Positions 185 through 57,128 of a stretch of DNA of 64,000 nucleotides are shown here, piece after piece. The stretch is from assembly GCF_000385135.1 (NCBI RefSeq), contig NZ_ARQM01000010.1, positions 62,001-126,000 on the forward strand. Direction: 5' to 3'. The notes under the pieces were generated by a model that worked only from the letters and a program-made list of their open reading frames with translations, was not told where the DNA came from and made no database searches. This stretch comes from Promicromonospora sukumoe 327MFSha3.1 (GTDB taxonomy: Bacteria; Actinomycetota; Actinomycetes; Actinomycetales; Cellulomonadaceae). Every line of letters begins with the position of its first letter. Within the stretch, counting starts at the first letter, position 1. A program made the translations under genes and the position numbers.

Positions 185-226
185 TGTCAGGCGTACAGAT
201 CACCGGGGTGACCTGTACGTCTGACA
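185..226. repeat. Dispersed palindrome, copy 1 (terminator-like)
   Basis: Two 20-nt arms, 185-204 and 207-226, are inverted repeats matching at 18 of 20 positions, with 2 nt between them. The right arm reads as the complement of TGTCAGACGTACAGGTCACC. It sits between the convergent ends of the TauE/SafE fragment and the SGNH hydrolase, as expected of a bidirectional terminator. The same sequence recurs at 17957-18006 and 56289-56346, which is more conservation than an ordinary terminator needs. Confidence 0.75.
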
Positions 227-242
227 CGACTCCTTGTTGGGG

Positions 243-1586
243 CTACTCGAGCGGTCCCAGGACCATCGACGGCTCGCCCGACGGCGTGAGCTTTGCCGCC
301 CCGAGGTTGCCGACGGTGCAGCTCCCGCTGCGCGGGCTCCCCGCGTTCCAGACCTGGCGCAGGCAGTTGCGCATCGCGAGCTGCCCCCAGTAGCTCGGGT
401 GCAGCGACTCCTGGACGTAGTACGGCGAGTCGCCGATGGTGGAGACCGTCCGGATCTGGTTGACCCACTCGGTCCGGTCGACCGCGCCGGCCGACTGCCA
501 GCTGGGCAGACCCACCTCCTCGTACAGCCCGACGCCGTTCTCGCACAGCCGCTTGCCGTCGAACGCGTGCGTCATGTCGAGGGTGCGGACGTTCGGCAGT
601 CCGACGTCGGCGGCGGCACCCAGCAGCGCGCCGTTGATGGTGGGCAGGGCCGTGGAGTTGGCCCAGTCGGCGTCCCGGTTCCAGAGGCCGCAGCCGCCCG
701 TGGACTGGCGGGTGTACCCGGACTCGGAGTAGCGGATGCCGGAACCGTTCGGCACGGGCGACGGGTAGGTCTGGACCACGAGGGTCCACTGGCTGGTGCT
801 GTACCCGGCGTTGCTCATCGCGGTCGCTACGTTGTCGAGCGCGCCCACCACCCGCGCCCGGACGTCGGCGACGCTCGAGGCGGTGAAGTTGGCCGCGACC
901 GAGCTGTCGTCGTGGCAGTAGTTCTTCCACCAGGTGGGCGAGGTGAGGAAGTTGACGACGCAGGACTGCACGACGCTCGCGAACTCGAAGTCGTTCCCGC
1001 CGATCGAGACGACGACCATGCGCACGTTCCTGGTGGCGGCGGCCTCCTGGAGCATGCGGGCCTGGCCCTTGCCGGCCGAGCCCTCGTAGAAGTCGATGCC
1101 CGGCTTGAAGTTCGTGCCGGTCGAGGTGGCGGTCGTGGCCCCGCTGCACGCGAGGTTGAGACCCTCGACACCGCCGCCGATGTAGGCCTCGGCGGAGGAC
1201 GCGCGATGGCAGCGCGGGATGGTCTCGCCCGTGCCGGAGGCGTTGTCGAAGTAGGCGGTCGGGCCGAGGGCGTCGGCCCGGTCCGAGTCGCTGTTGGAGG
1301 CGCCCGCCCAGCGTCCGGCCTCCCCGGAGATGTAGGAGTCGCCGAGGGTCACGACCCACGGCGTGCCGACGCCGGGGCCGTCGGCGGGCAGGGGAGCCGC
1401 GGTCGCAGGGGCGGCTCCCGGCACCGCGGCCGCGAGGGCCGTGACCGTGGCGAGGGAGACGGCGAAGGAGACGGCGAGGCAGCCGGTCAGGTAGCTGCTG
1501 AGGGGGCGGCGGGCGTTCCAGGGGCGGCGGGTTCGTCTGGTTCGTCGGGGGCCGGAGCGGTCGGGAGAGGGCAGGTGCGTCGTCAT
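243..1586 (-). CDS. Secreted SGNH/GDSL-family hydrolase
   Basis: A 447-residue secreted esterase/lipase-like protein of the SGNH superfamily. A basic N-terminus is followed by a hydrophobic signal segment at about residues 32-64. Block I is GDSYISG at about 82-88, with Ser84 the likely nucleophile. The Gly block appears in the middle, an oxyanion GGND motif follows, and a C-terminal SLHP supplies the catalytic His. Six or more cysteines suggest disulfides outside the cell. The start ATG at 1584-1586 is preceded by AGGAG with 6-nt spacing; an upstream ATG at 1640 would add 18 residues before the signal peptide and is less likely. Related actinobacterial enzymes hydrolyse lipid or polysaccharide acyl esters, but the substrate here is unknown. 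Confidence 0.85.
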   Translation of the reverse strand: MTTHLPSPDRSGPRRTRRTRRPWNARRPLSSYLTGCLAVSFAVSLATVTALAAAVPGAAPATAAPLPADGPGVGTPWVVTLGDSYISGEAGRWAGASNSDSDRADALGPTAYFDNASGTGETIPRCHRASSAEAYIGGGVEGLNLACSGATTATSTGTNFKPGIDFYEGSAGKGQARMLQEAAATRNVRMVVVSIGGNDFEFASVVQSCVVNFLTSPTWWKNYCHDDSSVAANFTASSVADVRARVVGALDNVATAMSNAGYSTSQWTLVVQTYPSPVPNGSGIRYSESGYTRQSTGGCGLWNRDADWANSTALPTINGALLGAAADVGLPNVRTLDMTHAFDGKRLCENGVGLYEEVGLPSWQSAGAVDRTEWVNQIRTVSTIGDSPYYVQESLHPSYWGQLAMRNCLRQVWNAGSPRSGSCTVGNLGAAKLTPSGEPSMVLGPLE

Positions 1587-10616: not shown

Positions 10617-11978
10617 ATGGCCACCAACCCGTCATCGAGCACGTCATCACCGCAGGCGTCATCACCGCAGGCGTCGGCATCGCCGGAGTCGGCTCCGCCG
10701 GAGTCAGTGCCACCGGAGTCAGCGCCGCCGGAGTCTGCGCTGCCCGAGTCTGCGGTGTCGGCGTCAGCATTGCCGGCGACGACGTCGTCAGGTCCAACGG
10801 TCGCGACCGGGCGGATCCTCGCGCTCGACGTCCTGCGGGGGATCGCGATCCTGGGCACGCTCGCCAGCAACGTCTGGCTGTTCAGCACCCCGGGCGGCCC
10901 GGCCGCGTGGATCTCCGACGGGTTCGCGACGGACGACCCGGCGCGGACGGTGCTGCAGGCCCTGTCCAACGGGAAGTTCCTCGCGCTGCTCACGCTGCTG
11001 TTCGGCGTGGGGCTCGAGCTGCAGTACCGGTCGATGGTGCGGCGCGGTATGCCGTGGCCCGGCCGGTACCTGCTGCGCGCCGGGATCCTCCTGGTCGAGG
11101 GGTTCCTGCACTACGTCCTCGTCTTCGAGTTCGACGTGCTGATGGGGTACGCGATCGCGTCCGTGCTCGCCGCCTACCTGATCGGGCGCAGCGACCGGGT
11201 GGTGCGAATCTGGGGCGGCGTGGTGGCCGGCGTGTACGTCGTGGCGATCGCGGGCCTCACCGCGCTCCTGGCCGTGACCTCGGACGCGTCCACGGCCGGT
11301 GCGTCCACGGCCGGTGCGTCCGGGACCGGGGGCGGGGCCTCCCTGTCGACGGCGAGCTGGCTGGACCAGGTCCTCGTGCGGCTCACCTACATGGACGTGT
11401 TCCGGATCGAGCTGCTCCTGATCGTCCCTTCGGCCACCGTCCTGTTCCTGGTGGGCTCGCGCCTCGTGCGCGCCGGCATGTTCTCCATGACGCCGGACGG
11501 CGCGCGGCTGCGTCGTCGGCTCGCGTGGGTCGGGCTCGGGGTCGGCATCCCGCTGAACGCGCTGACGACCTGGGCCGGGCCGACCTGGGTGCTTGTCGAC
11601 CGGTACCTGGTCCCGCCGCTGGTGGCCCTGGGCATCCTCGCGCTCGGCACCACGCTCGTCGCCCGTGGGCAGTCCGGGCGCGGGCGGGGGCGCGGGCTTG
11701 AGGGCGGGCCGGGGAGCAGGCCGGGTCTGCTGCGGCGCGGCGTCGAGGGGATCGGGCGGACGGCGCTGTCCTGCTACGTGCTCCAGAACGTGCTCGCCTC
11801 GGTGATCTGCTACGACTGGGGTCTCGGCCTCGCGGGCGGTGACGCGTGGCAGGTCGTGCTGATCTGGGCGGTCATCTCGCTGATCCTCCTGGTGGCGGCG
11901 CCCCTGTGGCTGCGTCGGTGGCCGCGCGGCCCGATCGAGCTCGTGATGCACCGGGTCTACGACGCGCGGCGCAGGTGA
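10617..11978 (+). CDS. DUF418-domain membrane protein (YeiB-like)
   Basis: A 453-residue membrane protein. The first 60 residues are Ser/Pro/Ala repeats (SSPQASSPQAS, PPES units). ILALDVLRGIAILGTL then starts the membrane core of about ten helices, with an invariant-looking DVLRG motif. The C-terminal DUF418 region includes ALSCYVLQNV. A 20-residue Ala/Gly/Thr insertion sits near residue 225. YeiB/DUF418 proteins are related to acyl-transferring membrane proteins and are thought to modify or transport cell-surface molecules, but the function is unproven. The ATG at 10617 has CAGGCT 6 bp upstream, a weak leaderless -10. It lies between two APH(3')-like genes. Confidence 0.83.
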   Translation: MATNPSSSTSSPQASSPQASASPESAPPESVPPESAPPESALPESAVSASALPATTSSGPTVATGRILALDVLRGIAILGTLASNVWLFSTPGGPAAWISDGFATDDPARTVLQALSNGKFLALLTLLFGVGLELQYRSMVRRGMPWPGRYLLRAGILLVEGFLHYVLVFEFDVLMGYAIASVLAAYLIGRSDRVVRIWGGVVAGVYVVAIAGLTALLAVTSDASTAGASTAGASGTGGGASLSTASWLDQVLVRLTYMDVFRIELLLIVPSATVLFLVGSRLVRAGMFSMTPDGARLRRRLAWVGLGVGIPLNALTTWAGPTWVLVDRYLVPPLVALGILALGTTLVARGQSGRGRGRGLEGGPGSRPGLLRRGVEGIGRTALSCYVLQNVLASVICYDWGLGLAGGDAWQVVLIWAVISLILLVAAPLWLRRWPRGPIELVMHRVYDARRR

Positions 11979-16949: not shown

Positions 16950-17939
16950 ATGTCCGACCTTCCCCTGCGCCGCCTCGGGCGCTCCGGCCTGTCCGTTCCC
17001 GTCGTCGGCCTGGGGTGCAACAACCTCGGCCGCACCGGCACCGTCACCGAGACCGCGGAGGGCGCCACCGCCCTGATCGACGCCGCCATCGACGCCGGGG
17101 TGACCTTCTTCGACACCGCCGACGCCTACGGCGCCCGTCCCGGACTGTCCGAGGAGCTGCTCGGTGCCGCGCTGCGTGGCCGTCGCGACGACGTGCTGAT
17201 CGCGACGAAGTTCGGGCTCGACCTGCACGGCGCGAACGGCCAGGACTTCGGCGCTCGCGGGTCGCGTCGGTACATCGTGCGGGCGGCCGAGGCGTCGCTG
17301 CGCCGGCTCGGCACCGACTGGATCGACCTCTACCAGCTGCACGCCCCCGACCCGGCGACCCCGATCGACGAGACGCTCGCCGCGCTCGACGACCTGGTCC
17401 GCGCGGGCAAGGTCCGCTACGTGGGCCACTCCAACTTCCGCGGCTGGCAGGTGGCGGACGCCGAGCACGTGGCCCGCGGGACCGGCGGCGCCGTCGGGAA
17501 CAGCGGCACGGGCGGCACCCGGTTCGTCTCCGCGCAGAACAAGTACTCGCTGCTCGCCCGCGGCCTGGAGCGAGAGGTGCTGCCCGCGGCCCGGGAGTAC
17601 GGCATCGGCGTGCTGCCGTACCACCCGCTGGAGAACGGCCTGCTCACCGGCAAGTACACCGGCGGCGCCCGGCCCGACGGCTCCCGTCTGGTCACGACCA
17701 AGCAGCAGCTTCTGGACACGGCGCCCTGGGCGGCCCTGGACCGGTTCGGCACCTTCTGCCGCGAGCGTGGAGTGACCGAGACAGACGTCGCGTTCTCCTG
17801 GCTGCTGACCCGGCCCGAGGTGTCGTCGGTGATCGCCGGGGCGACCCGGCCCGAGCAGGTGCGGGGGAACGCCCAGGCCTGGACCTGGACGCCGACGGCG
17901 GAGGACCTCGCGGAGCTGGACGAGATCTTCCCGGCCTGA
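16950..17939 (+). CDS. Aldo/keto reductase
   Basis: A 329-residue NADPH-dependent oxidoreductase with the (alpha/beta)8 fold. The N-terminal LGRSGLSVPVVGLGCNNLG is typical. The catalytic tetrad is readable as Asp in FFDTADAYG, Tyr in the same motif, Lys in IATKFGL and His in YQLHAPD. VRYVGHSNF and the C-terminal SVIAGATRPEQV (cofactor phosphate binding) are also present. A short Gly-rich insertion (GTGGAVGNSGTGGT) follows VARG. The substrate is unknown; relatives reduce sugar aldehydes or ketones. The start is set by a leaderless -10. A perfect 23-bp inverted repeat 17 bp downstream probably ends its transcript. Confidence 0.9.
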   Translation: MSDLPLRRLGRSGLSVPVVGLGCNNLGRTGTVTETAEGATALIDAAIDAGVTFFDTADAYGARPGLSEELLGAALRGRRDDVLIATKFGLDLHGANGQDFGARGSRRYIVRAAEASLRRLGTDWIDLYQLHAPDPATPIDETLAALDDLVRAGKVRYVGHSNFRGWQVADAEHVARGTGGAVGNSGTGGTRFVSAQNKYSLLARGLEREVLPAAREYGIGVLPYHPLENGLLTGKYTGGARPDGSRLVTTKQQLLDTAPWAALDRFGTFCRERGVTETDVAFSWLLTRPEVSSVIAGATRPEQVRGNAQAWTWTPTAEDLAELDEIFPA

Positions 17940-17956: not shown

Positions 17957-18006
17957 CACGTGTCAGACGTACAGGTCACCCGAGTGACCTGTACGTCTGA
18001 CACGTG
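17957..18006. repeat. Dispersed palindrome, copy 2 (perfect 23-bp stem)
   Basis: Arms 17957-17979 and 17984-18006 are perfect inverted repeats of 23 bp with a 4-nt loop (CCGA); the core is TGTCAGACGTACAGGTCAC. It is the best of the three copies in this window. It stands between the aldo/keto reductase and PhzF genes, both on the plus strand. It is followed by several ACACGTGGGGACGGGC repeats up to about 18070. Confidence 0.88.
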
Positions 18007-18073
18007 GGGACGGGCTACACGTGGGGACGGGCCGACACGTGCGGGATGGTCTGACACGTGGGGACGGGCTCGG

Positions 18074-18079
18074 TAGCGT
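18074..18079 (+). promoter_or_regulatory. -10 element TAGCGT, leaderless start
   Basis: It ends 7 bp before the ATG of the PhzF-family gene at 18087. Confidence 0.55.
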
Positions 18080-18086
18080 GGCGGGC

Positions 18087-18974
18087 ATGAGTCTTTCGCC
18101 GCGCGCGTTCCGCCAGGTCAACGTCTTCTCCGCGCAGCCGACGGCGGGCAACCCCGTCGCCGTCGTGCACGGGGCCGACGGCCTCACCGACGAGCAGCTG
18201 GCCGACTTCGCCCGGTGGACCAACCTCTCGGAGACCACGTTCCTGCTCGACCCGACCGAGGCCGGGCGTGCGGCGGGCGCCGACTACCGCGTCCGCATCT
18301 GGACCCCGGGCGGCGAGCTGCCGTTCGCCGGGCACCCCACGCTCGGCACCGCGCACGCCTGGCTGGAGGCCGGCGGCGTCCCGCGCGGGCAGGACGTCAT
18401 CCAGGAGTGCGGCGTCGGCCTGGTGCGGGTCCGCCGCCAGGACACCGGCTCGGGGCAGCGCCTCGCGTTCGCCGGCCCGCCCCTGATTCGCTCCGGCGCC
18501 GTCGACGACGCCGACCTCGCCCGGATCGCGCGCTCGCTGCGCCTCGACGTGTCCGACGTCGTCCGCTCGGCCTGGGTGGACAACGGGCCCGGCTGGGTGG
18601 CGGTCCAGCTCCGCGACGCATACGTCGTGCTCGGCCTGGAGCCCGACCTGGTGGCGATGGGCGACCTCAAGCTCGGCGTCGTCGGCGAGTACGCGCCGGG
18701 CGAGCGCCCCGCAGAACAGAGCGCCAGTGCCCCCGCAGTCGAGGTGCGCGCCTTCGTCCCGTCCATCGGCGTCGGGGAGGACCCGGTGACGGGCAGCCTC
18801 AACGCCGGACTCGGCCAGTGGCTCGCCGGCGACGTGCTGCCGTCGTCGTACATCGCGTCGCAGGGGACGGTGATGGGCCGGGCGGGCCGCGTCCACGTCG
18901 AGAAGCTGCCCGACGGCGAGGTGTGGGTCGGCGGCGACACCGTCACCACGATCGTCGGCGAGGTGACGCTCTAG
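18087..18974 (+). CDS. PhzF-family isomerase/epimerase-like protein
   Basis: A 295-residue protein of the PhzF/diaminopimelate-epimerase fold. The acidic catalytic residue is in NLSETTF near residue 50, the substrate-binding PFAGHPTLGTAHA follows, and the C-terminal half has GEDPVTGSLNAGLGQWL. PhzF itself isomerises a phenazine precursor, but most homologues, including this one, are stand-alone proteins of unknown substrate. No phenazine genes are nearby. The ATG at 18087 fits a leaderless promoter. It is convergent with the DUF418/HGSNAT-like gene, with 26 bp between. Confidence 0.9.
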   Translation: MSLSPRAFRQVNVFSAQPTAGNPVAVVHGADGLTDEQLADFARWTNLSETTFLLDPTEAGRAAGADYRVRIWTPGGELPFAGHPTLGTAHAWLEAGGVPRGQDVIQECGVGLVRVRRQDTGSGQRLAFAGPPLIRSGAVDDADLARIARSLRLDVSDVVRSAWVDNGPGWVAVQLRDAYVVLGLEPDLVAMGDLKLGVVGEYAPGERPAEQSASAPAVEVRAFVPSIGVGEDPVTGSLNAGLGQWLAGDVLPSSYIASQGTVMGRAGRVHVEKLPDGEVWVGGDTVTTIVGEVTL

Positions 18975-31449: not shown

Positions 31450-31455
31450 CAGCGA

Positions 31456-31487
31456 GAAAGGCCCGGTCCACACGGACCGGGCCTTTC
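31456..31487 (+). terminator. Terminator of the tRNA cluster
   Basis: A perfect 14-bp stem (GAAAGGCCCGGTCC and its complement) with a 4-nt ACAC loop begins 6 bp after the last tRNA. Confidence 0.88.
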
Positions 31488-31823
31488 GCCGTCCCGGGGT
31501 GCCTGCGGCCTGGCTCGGCTCCGGGCACCTGCCGCCCGTGTCGAGCGCCGACGGTCGAACGTAGATTTCGTCGCCCTCTCGGCTCTCTTGGGGCGACTGA
31601 CCCTACGTTCACTTCAGGCGCCGAGGTTGGTCAGGCGCCGAGGTCGGTCTGCCGCTCGAGTCGCATCGGTGCTGGTCGACGGCGGTGTTCCGCCGGCGGC
31701 CGGGTTCATCTCGCGCCGGCGTGCGACGTTACTCGCGCCGAGTGCTGGCCGATCGTGCGTGTGCTGGCGGCCTGCGACTCGGCGTGCTGTCTGCCCGGTG
31801 CGGGGCGGCGCCGGGCAGGCCGG
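31488..31823. other. 336-bp gap without a supported gene
   Basis: This lies between the tRNA terminator (+) and the end of the PH-domain gene (-). It has a few short direct repeats (AGGCGCCGAGG near 31617 and 31634). Short open frames here have no RBS or recognisable product; the minus-strand one ending in the tRNA is a known artefact. Confidence 0.6.
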
Positions 31824-36656: not shown

Positions 36657-36664
36657 CGCACCGC

Positions 36665-36710
36665 TCGCGCCCCTCTTGTGGTCAGGATCCTGGCCGCAGG
36701 AGGGGCGCGA
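36665..36710. terminator. Terminator between leuD and the convergent acyltransferase gene
   Basis: Arms TCGCGCCCCTC (36665-36675) and GAGGGGCGCGA (36700-36710) form a perfect 11-bp stem with a 24-nt loop. It overlaps the last codons of the minus-strand acyltransferase. Confidence 0.6.
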
Positions 36711-39162
36711 CCGCGTCCGCGACGTACGGGGCCAGCGTTCCCGCGAAGGTGTCCGTCAGGTGGTCGGCGTCCCGGTAGACGGTGACGCCGCCGATCACCG
36801 GCCGGCACTCCCGGGCGTCGCAGTAGACGTCCGTGAAGTCGACCAGGACGACGTCGGGCCGGTGCAGCCGCTCGACGGCGCCCCGCTGCGGGTCGAAGGC
36901 GCTGGTCGCGACGGAGCGCGGGACGCGGCAGGCGGTGGCGACGTCGAGGCCGGTGCCGGCGGCCGTGTCGTTGCCGGCGGCTGTGTGGTTGCCGGCGGCC
37001 GTGTCGTTGTCGGCGGCTGCGTCGGACGTGGTCAGACACTCGATCACCTCCGGGTCGGCCCGGGGCACGTCGGCGACGGCGGCCACCGGTGTCCCGTCGT
37101 CGGCGAGCCGCGCCCACAAGCCCGCCAGTCCCTCCTCGGCCCATGTCTCCTGGTCGTTGTCCGAACCGGGCGGCAGTGCCCAGTCGACGCCGCTCATCTG
37201 CGAGGTGACGACGAGGTCGTAGTCGCCGTCGGCCAGCAGCCGCTCCGTACGGTCGACCCACTCGGCGCACGTCGCGGTCAGGACGTCGTCCTGCACCCGC
37301 CCCGCGTCTGAGAACGGGCAGCCCGCCTTGACGAAGATGTCCAGGGCCCAGCCGTTCGCCTTGGCCGCGCCCACCAGGGCGCTCGCGTAGTGCGCCGCGT
37401 GGGAGTCGCCCACCAGGGCGATCCGGACGCCGCTGCGGCGGTCGCCGCGCTCGCACGCGATCGGCTCGGCCTCCTCGCGGCCGGTGGTCGAGCACATGTC
37501 CGCGCCCAGCGTGAACGGTGCGGGCAGGTCCTCGGCGGCCGCCTCCGGGGCCGGCACGGGGTTCGGCACGGAGCTCGCCACGGAGTTCGCCACGGAGTTC
37601 GGCACGGAGTTCGGCACGGGGTTCGGCACGGAGTTCGGCACCACAGGCGGCACCAAGGTCGGCGCCGGTATCGCCGCAGGGCCTGCTGCGGGGGACGCTG
37701 CCGGGGCCGCGGCGGCCGCGGCCGGGTCCCCGCCCTGGTCCTGCTCCCGGTCCGCACAGGGCTCGCCGCCCGGAGGCCGGGCCGCGGCGCCGAAGCACTC
37801 GGCGCCGGCCCTGTCCTCGGCGGCGTCCTCGGCGACGGCGAGCTCGCTCCGGATGTGCTCCTGCGCCGAGTGCACCCCGGTGAAGGCCACCGCGACGACG
37901 ACGGTGCCGACCGCCGCGGCGGCCGCGAACGTGCCCCAGGGCCGGAACGAGCCGCGGTGCCGGAGCACCGGCAGCTCGACCCAGCGCCGGGTGGCCCAGG
38001 CCAGGAGCAGCGTGGCGAGCAGGATCGCGAGCTTGTCGCCGGTGCGCAGGTCGTGCCCCGTGGCGTAGGGGACCAGCACGACCAGGGGCCAGTGCCACAG
38101 GTAGACCGCGTAGGACACGTCGCCCAGGAACCGCACCGGGGACGACCTGGCGAGGCGGCTGGCGAGGCGGCTGGTGAGACTTTCGGGGGACCGCTCGGTC
38201 GCCCCCGCCCAGATCACCAGGACGGCGCCGAGCACGGGCAGCGCGGCCCAGGCCCCGGGGAACGGCGTCGCGTCCGTGAGGACGACGGCCGCGACGCCGA
38301 TCAGGGCCAGGCCCGCCCAGGCGGCGATCCCGGGCAGGACGGGGGAGCGGTCGGTCGGTCTGGACGGCTGGCCCGGTTGGCCCGGCTGGCCCGGCTGGCG
38401 CGGCTGGCCCGGCTGGCGCGGCTGGCGCTGCCGGGACGACAGCGACGGCGCGAACGCCAGCAGGGCACCGGCGCCGAACTCCCAGGCCCGCGTCGGCGTG
38501 ACGAAGTACGCGTACGCCTGGTCGGCGTCCGTCCAGAGCACCGAGATGACCAGGGACGTGACCACGACCAGGGCCAGCATCCCGGCCACGACCGCCCGCC
38601 ACCCGGCCCCGTGGCGGGCGTGGCCGGTGTACCGGGGGCCGGAGCGGAGCCACCGGTTGACGACGAGGCACCCGCCGATCAGCAACGGCCAGACCAGGTA
38701 GAGCTGTGCCTCGGCCGAGAGCGACCAGTAGTGCCGCACGGGCGACGCCAGGTCGCCCGCCGCGAGGTAGTCCACGGCGGCGTCGGCCAGCACCCAGTTC
38801 TGGACGGACAGCCCGGAGGCCGCGATCTCGCGGAACCACTGCTCCCGGTGCTGCACCGGGACCAGCACGCGGACGCCCACCGCCGTCGCCCCGAGCACGA
38901 GCACCGACGCGGGCAGGAGCCGCAGGATCCGTCGCGACCAGAACTCGGCGACCGAGAACCGGCCGGCGTCCACGTCGCGCGCGATGTGTGACGTGATCAG
39001 GACACCCGAGACCACGAAGAACACGTCGACGCCCACGTAACCGCCCGGGACCCGGTCGGGCCACAGGTGGAAGAGCAGGACCGCCACCACGGCCACGGCC
39101 CGCAGCGCCTGGATGTCGGCACGCGAGGGCAGGGTCGGGGTGGATCGGCGCTCGTCGGGCAC
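36682..39162 (-). CDS. OafA/YrhL-type acyltransferase with SGNH domain
   Basis: An 826-residue membrane O-acyltransferase that probably acetylates an envelope polysaccharide. The acyltransferase-3 domain (about residues 14-400, ten helices) opens with DIQALRAVAVVAVLLFH, has the motif GGYVGVDVFFVVSGVLIT and carries the conserved RR. After a long linker the extracellular SGNH domain has VALVGDSHAAHY and ends near VTVYRDADHLTD, supplying catalytic Ser and His. Three short-repeat insertions are visible: GQP/RQP near 265, VPNSVPNPVPNSV near 510 and Asn-Thr/His-Thr-Ala-Ala-Gly near 725. The start GTG at 39160-39162 has ACGGAG upstream. It is convergent with leuD. Confidence 0.88.
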   Translation of the reverse strand: MPDERRSTPTLPSRADIQALRAVAVVAVLLFHLWPDRVPGGYVGVDVFFVVSGVLITSHIARDVDAGRFSVAEFWSRRILRLLPASVLVLGATAVGVRVLVPVQHREQWFREIAASGLSVQNWVLADAAVDYLAAGDLASPVRHYWSLSAEAQLYLVWPLLIGGCLVVNRWLRSGPRYTGHARHGAGWRAVVAGMLALVVVTSLVISVLWTDADQAYAYFVTPTRAWEFGAGALLAFAPSLSSRQRQPRQPGQPRQPGQPGQPGQPSRPTDRSPVLPGIAAWAGLALIGVAAVVLTDATPFPGAWAALPVLGAVLVIWAGATERSPESLTSRLASRLARSSPVRFLGDVSYAVYLWHWPLVVLVPYATGHDLRTGDKLAILLATLLLAWATRRWVELPVLRHRGSFRPWGTFAAAAAVGTVVVAVAFTGVHSAQEHIRSELAVAEDAAEDRAGAECFGAAARPPGGEPCADREQDQGGDPAAAAAAPAASPAAGPAAIPAPTLVPPVVPNSVPNPVPNSVPNSVANSVASSVPNPVPAPEAAAEDLPAPFTLGADMCSTTGREEAEPIACERGDRRSGVRIALVGDSHAAHYASALVGAAKANGWALDIFVKAGCPFSDAGRVQDDVLTATCAEWVDRTERLLADGDYDLVVTSQMSGVDWALPPGSDNDQETWAEEGLAGLWARLADDGTPVAAVADVPRADPEVIECLTTSDAAADNDTAAGNHTAAGNDTAAGTGLDVATACRVPRSVATSAFDPQRGAVERLHRPDVVLVDFTDVYCDARECRPVIGGVTVYRDADHLTDTFAGTLAPYVADAVAPLLRPGS
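38370..38440. repeat. Coding 9-bp repeat CTGGCCCGG
   Basis: About seven imperfect 9-bp units in the acyltransferase gene encode Pro-Gly-Gln/Pro-Arg-Gln on the minus strand, in a loop between membrane helices. Confidence 0.8.
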
Positions 39163-56288: not shown

Positions 56289-56346
56289 CCCGCCCGTGTC
56301 AGACACACAGGTCACCCGGGTGATCCGTACGTCTGACACGGGCGGG
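56289..56346. repeat. Dispersed palindrome, copy 3 (29-bp arms)
   Basis: Arms 56289-56317 and 56318-56346 match as inverted repeats at 25 of 29 positions, with GC-rich outer extensions (CCCGCCC/GGGCGGG). The core is the same sequence as copies 1 and 2. It lies 36 bp beyond the stop of the TauE/SafE gene. Confidence 0.85.
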
Positions 56347-56381: not shown

Positions 56382-57128
56382 TCAGAGCGTGAGGAGGCCC
56401 CGGGCCAGGGCCGTCACGGCGCCCGCCGTCGCGACCGTGAGGGCCGTCCGGGACGCCGCCCGGGTCGAGATCCGCAGGGCCAGGAAGTTGCCGGCCGCCA
56501 CACCGGCCAGCACCGCCGCCAGCAGCACCGGCCACACCCACCACGCCGGGGCGAAGCCGGACGGGATGGCGCCGAAGCCCAGCTTGGTCGCCACCGACAT
56601 GGCGTTCATGACCACGAGCAGCGGCTGCATCGTCGCCGCGAACGACCGGTGGTCCCAGCGGGTGGCCAGCGCGTACGCGGTCCAGGCGGGTGCGGCGACG
56701 CCCGATGTGGTGTTCATGAACCCCGCCGCCAGCCCCGTGGCGACGGCCACCGAGCGGCCCTGGATCCGCACGCGGCGCCGCAGGATCGCCGAGGCGCCCA
56801 GCGCGAGCAGCACCGACCCGCCCACGATCACGTCGAGCCAGGCCGGGTCGGCCTCGCGGACCGTGAGCGCGCCGAGCACCGAGCCCACCAGCATCAGCGG
56901 CAGGATCGTCACGACGCGCCGCCATTCCACGCCGTCGCGCAGCGCGCGCAGGATGAGCAGGGCCGTGACGATCGCGGCGACGTTGCTCACCAGCACGCCC
57001 ACCGAGGCGCCCAGGAACACGGTCAGCACCGGCGCGGCCACCATGCCGACACCCATCCCGGCGATGCGCTGCAGCCCGGCCCCGAGGACGACGGCCACGC
57101 ACGCTGCGATCAGGGCCGTCGTCTCCAC
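56382..57128 (-). CDS. TauE/SafE-family permease
   Basis: A 248-residue membrane protein with eight predicted helices and the duplicated TauE/SafE pattern (GAGLQRIAGMGVGMVAAPVL near the N-terminus, GFMNTTSGVAAPAWTAYAL in the second half). The family is thought to export sulfite or organosulfonates, or to carry other anions. The GTG at 57126-57128 has TAGCGT ending 6 bp upstream. Its end closely resembles the fragment at 1-159, and both are followed by the same palindrome. Confidence 0.88.
   Translation of the reverse strand: METTALIAACVAVVLGAGLQRIAGMGVGMVAAPVLTVFLGASVGVLVSNVAAIVTALLILRALRDGVEWRRVVTILPLMLVGSVLGALTVREADPAWLDVIVGGSVLLALGASAILRRRVRIQGRSVAVATGLAAGFMNTTSGVAAPAWTAYALATRWDHRSFAATMQPLLVVMNAMSVATKLGFGAIPSGFAPAWWVWPVLLAAVLAGVAAGNFLALRISTRAASRTALTVATAGAVTALARGLLTL

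What the first reader, a model, noticed from the sequence alone, without database searches (positions are those of the whole stretch)
17957..18006. A conserved dispersed palindrome found three times, always just downstream of a gene
The perfect 23-bp inverted repeat here shares its core (TGTCAGACGTACAGGTCAC) with copies at 185-226 and 56289-56346. Plain terminators keep structure but not sequence; these keep sequence across 56 kb. Copy 3 has extra pairing arms outside the core, and compensating changes appear between arms. This suggests a family-wide terminator spread by copying (REP/RIT-like) or a protein-binding palindrome that also ends transcription.
Basis: seen in the sequence. Interest (0 to 1): 0.72.

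Follow-up and report, generated by a model that had tools for sequence, protein, structure and literature searches.

The report
Dispersed palindrome family at gene ends
A short mirror-image DNA sequence is scattered about a hundred times through this soil bacterium's genome, usually right behind genes and sometimes inside them, much like the REP repeats of other bacteria, and it probably folds the ends of messenger RNAs into hairpins.

Summary
Three copies of a 42-44 bp palindrome lie in the window, and the 6.25 Mb genome (a Promicromonospora) has 115 forward and 111 reverse half-sites against 0 in the control. Of 85 copies placed against called genes, 47 are tandem, 27 convergent, 3 divergent and 8 touch a gene. 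Tandem copies start a median of 12 nt after the upstream stop codon. Copies also sit in frame inside conserved genes. This matches the REP/RPE kind of repeat. But no Y1/RAYT transposase is found (0 of 15 genomes), there is no GTAG or CGTC tag, and no T-tract follows the stem. It is neither a tagged REP nor a canonical terminator. Positions are kept in near relatives, paired changes keep the stem, and copies deep in ORFs pair worse. At some orthologous 3' ends, murA among them, species carry palindromes of unrelated sequence, but a blind test of such exchange holds at only one of five settings. Most likely: a REP-like mobile palindrome kept as a two-way RNA 3'-end hairpin. The copying machinery and the RNA function were not shown.

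The parts
185..226 (.). copy 1 of the palindrome (arms 185-203 / 208-226), between convergent gene ends
   Evidence: R1 match 180-231, 65.9 bits
17954..18009 (.). copy 2 (the finding): perfect 23-bp arms 17957-17979 / 17984-18006, loop CCGA; its core starts 21 nt after the stop of an aldo/keto reductase gene
   Evidence: RNA fold -51.9 kcal/mol, z -9.5
56289..56346 (.). copy 3 with extra outer arms, between two minus-strand genes; its core lies 43 nt after the stop of a TauE-type gene
17999..18070 (+). tandem repeat (about 18-nt unit, 4 copies) that starts in the right arm of copy 2
16950..17939 (+). aldo/keto reductase gene upstream of copy 2
   Evidence: PF00248, 3.9e-68
18078..18974 (+). 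PhzF-type gene downstream of copy 2
   Evidence: PF02567, 4e-51
243..1586 (-). gene whose 3' end faces copy 1 (no Pfam match at 1e-5; looks like an SGNH hydrolase, a recalled label)
56382..57128 (-). TauE/SafE-type gene whose 3' end faces copy 3
   Evidence: PF01925, 2.2e-21

Best explanation
This is one copy of a dispersed, non-autonomous, REP/RPE-like palindromic element about 44-46 bp long: GTGTCAGAC, 26 nt of self-pairing interior, GTCTGACAC. It multiplied in some Promicromonospora species. Copies can land in genes (tolerated in the one reading frame without stops) and between genes. They are kept mainly within about 30 nt behind stop codons. There the transcript folds into a hairpin of about 20 or more base pairs that works from either side as a 3'-end element: a barrier to 3' exonucleases, probably combined with factor-dependent termination. 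At a given 3' end a strong hairpin seems to be what is selected, because stems are preserved by paired changes, hairpin-bearing 3' ends are shared between species, and at some ends the palindrome is a different one in another species. Shown here: dispersal, placement, in-frame insertions, orthologous retention, paired changes, and single cases of exchange. Inferred: the RNA function. Unknown: what copies it; no Y1/RAYT transposase was found.
For: 115 forward and 111 reverse half-sites, control 0. Of 85 copies in context, 47 tandem, 27 convergent, 3 divergent, 8 touching a called gene; background gaps of 50 nt or more are 128 tandem, 57 divergent, 55 convergent. 44 of 47 tandem copies are nearer the upstream stop than the next start, p=2.5e-10. 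In-frame copies in a CydC-like ABC gene, a Rieske-type (NirD-like) gene and SUMT, and in Mfd-like and HrpA-like genes of another genus. Own vs G006: 9 of 11 intergenic copies with orthologs meet the positional rule, one more just misses it, and the eleventh has a G006 copy lacking two bases in one arm. Covariation at pairs 9-11. Deep ORF copies pair worse than own intergenic ones: 15.1 vs 17.3 of 19 Watson-Crick pairs, 9 vs 80 copies, p=3.5e-4. Any long palindrome, found without regard to family: 42 orthologous 3' ends have one in both own and G006, 7 own only, 13 G006 only, 182 neither, p=2.5e-28.
Against: No transcript data. Canonical terminator features are absent. The G-U versus A-C asymmetry does not follow the direction of transcription (15 vs 10 at pair 15, 14 vs 11 elsewhere), which a purely RNA-level constraint might predict. 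Pair 15 is anti-covarying (GC 29, AC 27, GT 19, AT 3 of 83). On the 27-copy alignment A1, chosen for one exact arm, covariation does not exceed shuffles (69/500). Several element-less orthologs in G003 have only background-level hairpins. The ORF copies compared are few and related (5 SUMT orthologs, 4 copies of one linker). An excess of family exchange is not robust in a blind test.
Confidence: 0.6

Rival explanations
1. The palindrome is a binding site for a dimeric DNA-binding protein (roadblock, chromosome organiser or regulator) that happens to sit at gene ends.
For: Most outer TGTCAGAC and inner letters hardly vary although pairing alone would let them change. The interior length is kept in G017 while some copies pair poorly inside. 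Pair 15 keeps an asymmetric G/A choice.
Against: Pairs 9-11 change in a paired way within and between species. Unrelated palindromes hold some of the same 3' ends in other species. Other genera keep only part of the letters. Copies lie in proteins.
Confidence: 0.2
2. It is an ordinary intrinsic terminator whose sequence was duplicated by chance or kept by selection.
For: Position right behind stop codons, very stable stem (mean -40.5 kcal/mol for 46 tandem copies), and convergent placement.
Against: No T-tract: at most 3 T in any 7-nt window within 20 nt after the core in 43 of 46 tandem copies, and none called in the region of copy 2. Copies inside ORFs. The same sequence at about a hundred places.
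Confidence: 0.12
3. Purely selfish repeat: the 3'-end bias only reflects that other places are harmful, with no role in RNA.
For: Large copy-number differences within the genus (1 to 191 forward half-sites in the 12 relatives), in-frame ORF copies, and no clear hairpin need in G003 orthologs.
Against: Near-complete retention at orthologous 3' ends at about 91% protein identity, stems kept by paired changes, worse pairing deep in ORFs, and long palindromes shared by slot between own and G006.
Confidence: 0.25

Closest known systems
GTAG REPs with RAYT transposases (Di Nocera 2013, PMC3733652; abstract, passages and section 15 seen)
   Same: Short dispersed palindromes, mostly between tandem or convergent genes and close to 3' ends, with some copies inside genes
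   Different: No Y1_Tnp protein in 15 genomes; stem of about 20 bp or more instead of 5-13; no unpaired GTAG tag. The phyla the passages name for GTAG do not include Actinobacteria.
CGTC REPs, including Rickettsia RPE-4/RPE-6 (same paper)
   Same: Insertion into proteins including repair enzymes and helicases, no dedicated transposase, 3'-end placement
   Different: Stems there are 8-9 bp with unpaired tag and CCA-like tail, mostly as dimers; here one long hairpin, paired to its ends
Untagged REP-like families (the same paper mentions M. tuberculosis and D. radiodurans among others) and the candidates of RepRanger (PMC12306157, passages only, three Actinomycetota genomes in its table)
   Same: Palindromic repeats without conserved terminal tag, also in actinobacteria
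   Different: Their sequences were not compared here
Intrinsic (Rho-independent) terminators
   Same: Hairpin just behind stop codons
   Different: No T-tract; sequence conserved across unrelated sites; copies in ORFs
Uptake-sequence terminators of Neisseria (recalled, not looked up)
   Same: Repeated motif in inverted pairs behind genes
   Different: Single half-sites are rare here: TGTCAGAC 4 times in 304 kb far from elements

Membership tests
REP (general sense: dispersed extragenic palindrome) | many copies of one palindrome, mainly intergenic | tested here: met
REP (general sense: dispersed extragenic palindrome) | preference for tandem/convergent gaps next to 3' ends | tested here: met
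   compared with PMC3733652 section 15
GTAG REP / RAYT system | Y1_Tnp (RAYT) transposase in the genome | tested here: not met
   PF01797: 0 of 15 genomes, control rings in 5 of 14
GTAG REP / RAYT system | unpaired GTAG tag at one end, stem 5-13 bp | tested here: not met
   flank composition of 83 copies: CG..CG continuing the stem, no GTAG
CGTC REP / RPE-4, RPE-6 | 8-9 bp stem with unpaired CGTC tag and CCA-like tail | tested here: not met
   stem of about 20 bp or more, both ends paired
CGTC REP / RPE-4, RPE-6 | in-frame insertion into protein-coding genes | tested here: met
Intrinsic terminator | T-tract after the stem | tested here: not met
Intrinsic terminator | ends transcription | not testable with these tools
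   no transcript data
MITE with terminal inverted repeats of an IS | the arm also found as the end of a longer transposon | tested here: inconclusive
   none seen among 85 copies, all with their partner arm close by, two with an indel; weaker half-sites were not all fetched
DNA uptake sequence | many single copies | tested here: not met

The most novel reading that the evidence does not exclude
In Promicromonospora, gene 3' ends behave as slots for long hairpins that are filled by at least four unrelated repeated palindrome families (this one; CGAACGTAGG, 56 nt; GGTCGAGCTTGTCGAGACC; GTTGAGTGCGGGG, 61 nt) and probably more. The families replace one another at orthologous ends. They are moved by a copying process without a Y1 transposase that favours or converts existing 3'-end hairpins.
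Probability: 0.22. Interest if true: 0.75.

Novelty: new variant of a known kind. Interest (0 to 1): 0.5.

Why it matters
The REP survey seen here (PMC3733652) names no Actinobacteria for tagged GTAG and CGTC palindromes and leaves open how the CGTC kind moves. A high-copy palindrome family without a Y1 transposase, with in-frame insertions that are shared or missing between species, and with unrelated palindromes at some of the same 3' ends, is a system where the origin of such repeats and their use as gene-end hairpins can be tested by comparing close strains. If hairpin slots at 3' ends are refilled by mobile palindromes, this is a route by which bacterial transcript ends are rewired.

Tried and rejected
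Rfam on the window at gathering threshold gave only three tRNAs. Y1_Tnp/RAYT as mobiliser: none. Viral contigs (0 exact matches) and plasmids (no match) as carriers: nothing. A scan of the phylum for the outer arms at fixed spacing: only the own genome of 296. In the order, 11 of 347 genomes match, of which only own (87) and G017 (17) exceed 2. Uptake-sequence idea rejected, single half-sites too rare. Sense-strand G-U bias as proof of RNA function: no clear bias. Compensation outside the core: weak; only the fourth outer pair stands out (49 vs 34 expected), the first slightly (76 vs 74.3). Covariation on A1: not beyond shuffles. A helicase tree to map copy number was poorly resolved and five rows were lost for want of an anchor motif; not used.

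Excess of family exchange: with motifs that I had defined after seeing some of the junctions, own against G006 gave p=1e-11. Leaving out three discovery junctions gave p=0.001 on 3 junctions, but two of those three had also helped define motifs, so only one is independent. Families built blind from shared k-mers: k=10 lumps nearly everything and gives 0 exchanged ends for own against G006. k=11 gives 6 exchanged ends over five genomes, p=0.007 for own against G006. k=12, 13 and 14 give 1 exchanged end, p 0.35-0.41. So the cases are seen, the excess is not established. I lowered the novel-case odds from 0.3 to 0.22 and interest from 0.55 to 0.5 for this. ORF copies: the first comparison (15 copies) held six copies close to a start call; one search uses only nine copies deep in genes, and the report gives that.

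Literature: no hit for the sequence itself, for REP with Actinobacteria and RAYT, or for repeated palindromes with actinobacteri and terminator. Promicromonospora with palindrom gave 9 papers, listing only. Searches gave listings, of which only PMC3733652 and PMC12306157 were opened. These searches cover open PMC papers only.

Full report
Observation. The three window copies are real. Copy 2 has perfect 23-bp arms with a 4-nt loop. The core gives 6 half-sites in the window against 0.02 expected. In the whole genome the core (up to 3 mismatches) gives 115 forward and 111 reverse half-sites; the reversed control gives 0. A covariance model (R1) built on 27 aligned copies matched all 150 candidates that the tool would score, so that count is a ceiling of the tool. 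Within the window's three copies no change is compensated; copy 3's one-sided changes become G-U pairs on the minus strand, apart from one A-C.

Where it occurs. Named relatives found by the SUMT gene are Promicromonospora (best 95% identity, P. kroppenstedtii DSM 19349). The twelve same-genus genomes hold 1 to 191 forward half-sites. The 46 genomes outside the genus hold 0 to 3, close to the control's 0 to 2. With R1, 16 of 121 family genomes match, including G081 (35 of 48 scored) and G017 (10), which are other genera. These use other spellings: G081 has GTGTCAGAACCTCAGGTACC, and G017 keeps GTGTCAGAC outside with a different interior of the same length.

Position. I called genes with a codon-usage script and placed 85 distinct own copies: 47 tandem, 27 convergent, 3 divergent, 8 touching a called gene. 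Gaps of at least 50 nt in the same sequence are 128 tandem, 57 divergent, 55 convergent. Of the eight, three lie wholly inside called genes; I judge from the distances that the other five overlap a gene end or a doubtful start. Tandem copies start a median of 12 nt after the upstream stop and 75 nt before the next start; 44 of 47 are nearer the stop. Convergent copies have a median of 11 nt to a stop.

Inside proteins. The element is open in one frame only, reading roughly VSDVQVTRVTCTSDT. In this genome it sits in frame in a CydC-like ABC transporter gene, in the SUMT (uroporphyrinogen methylase) gene, and 16 nt behind the called start of a NirD-like gene, where translation may really begin further down. 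In G006 the ABC linker carries three copies in a 108-nt tandem unit. In G017, Mfd-like and HrpA-like genes carry several (these four gene names are recalled, Pfam supports the domains). The SUMT insertion is shared by seven of 13 genus genomes, shortened or worn in others, and missing in G011 and G008. Among named records it is present in P. kroppenstedtii, P. panici, P. umidemergens and strains MEB111 and AC04, and shortened or absent in P. soli and two P. iranensis strains. So this insertion is older than many of the species.

Retention and turnover. Syntenic stretches were compared (own 324 kb, G006 360 kb, G007 149 kb, G010 103 kb, G003 220 kb; fetched, compared). Of 11 own intergenic copies, G006 has one at the same 3' end in 9, one more lies just outside my distance rule, and the last is a G006 copy with two bases missing in one arm. 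G007 has 4 of 5, G010 2 of 3 and G003 0 of 7. The R1 search finds one strong element in the 220 kb of G003, at a junction where G006 and G007 have it and own does not, and none in 436 kb of six further species. Median protein identity own-G006 is 91%, and the DNA around orthologous copies is largely unlike by eye, so the palindrome itself is being kept.

Stem or sequence. Among 83 copies (two with an indel left out), pairs 9-11 vary in a paired way (Watson-Crick 70, 69, 76 against 56.5, 48.4, 69.0 with partners shuffled; relatedness not controlled). Most other positions hardly vary. Pair 15 avoids A-T (GC 29, AC 27, GT 19, AT 3), so many copies have one GGTC and one GATC arm. Orthologous copies swap paired letters in the middle, for example own CCCAC/GTGGG against G007 CCCTC/GAGGG. 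On A1 the official pair count is not beyond shuffles. Nine copies deep in ORFs (five SUMT orthologs, four copies of one ABC linker) pair worse than 80 own intergenic ones: 15.1 vs 17.3 of 19, p=3.5e-4, relatedness not controlled. No T-tract follows the stem.

Hairpin slots. Long palindromes found de novo, whatever their sequence, fall at the same orthologous 3' ends in own and G006: 42 ends in both, 7 own only, 13 G006 only, 182 neither, p=2.5e-28. Ordinary conserved terminators contribute to this.

Exchange of families. At the murA 3' end G006, G007 and G003 have this palindrome, own has CGAACGTAGGCCTGGTCGCCTCATGAG in perfect inverted repeat, and G005 has a long hairpin of a third sequence. 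Family 2 (CGAACGTAGG, 56 nt) has 8 copies in 324 kb of own, two of them inside an ORF and visibly less well paired. Family 3 (GGTCGAGCTTGTCGAGACC) has 4 in own; family 4 (GTTGAGTGCGGGG, 61 nt) has 7 in G006; family 5 (GGCGAAGTAGAAC) is at two own junctions, three at looser settings. Reversed controls are 0 at the looser settings. Over five genomes, 48 3' ends carry one of these palindromes in at least one genome; 15 carry the same family in two or more; 12 ends (7 junctions) carry different families. One junction is that of window copy 1: this family in four genomes, a CGACTGCAGACC palindrome in G003, a motif seen only in G003 and G002 and so not shown to be dispersed. The motifs were defined after seeing such junctions. 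Blind clustering of de novo palindromes recovers this family as the largest (26-30 members at k=12-14) and several others. The number of exchanged ends depends on stringency: at k=11, 6 ends, p=0.007 for own against G006; at k=12-14, 1 end, not significant; at k=10 the families merge. The single cases stand; an excess over chance is not established.

Reading. Dispersal, placement and in-frame insertion match what Di Nocera and colleagues describe for REPs (PMC3733652, abstract, passages and section 15). Tags, stem length and transposase do not match. That paper also mentions untagged REP-like families, one in M. tuberculosis, and RepRanger lists candidates in three Actinomycetota genomes (PMC12306157, passages), so palindromic repeats in this phylum are not new as such. 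I call this a REP/RPE-like element of a family not found in print in my searches, most likely kept as a two-way 3'-end hairpin. RNA function and mode of copying are inferred.

Noticed in passing
window 31556-31611: Worn copy of a second palindrome family (CGAACGTAGG...CCTACGTTCG, 56 nt) behind the tRNA-Gln/Glu cluster; 8 copies in 324 kb of this genome.
   Followed up: partly
window 17999-18070: Tandem repeat of the right arm end of copy 2; similar short tandem copies flank elements in G006 and G010, and G001 has a run of GGTCTGACAC-like units with no element found there.
   Followed up: partly
L152:19593-19648: Own and G006 share the hairpin tip at this convergent junction but differ in the outer arms on both sides (family 2 against family 4).
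   Followed up: partly
L173 about 11481-11738 (G006): A 108-nt unit containing the palindrome is repeated three times in frame inside an ABC transporter linker.
   Followed up: partly
L149, L152, L145, L161, L171: GGTCGAGCTTGTCGAGACC palindromes dispersed in this genome and G006, a third family, also with copies inside called ORFs.
   Followed up: partly
own, G006, G007, G010 and G003 stretches: Blind clustering shows further repeated palindromes at 3' ends, for example with GTGATCGGCAGTTCGTCAGG (9 members) and GAGACCTAAGTTTCTTCGC (5 members).
   Followed up: no
L188 1-260 (G017): GTGTCAGAC...GTCTGACAC units at a 61-nt period with about 17-nt spacers in another genus.
   Followed up: no
window 36662-36713 and 31454-31489: Hairpins at a convergent gap and behind the tRNA cluster; similar ones lie in relatives.
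   Followed up: no
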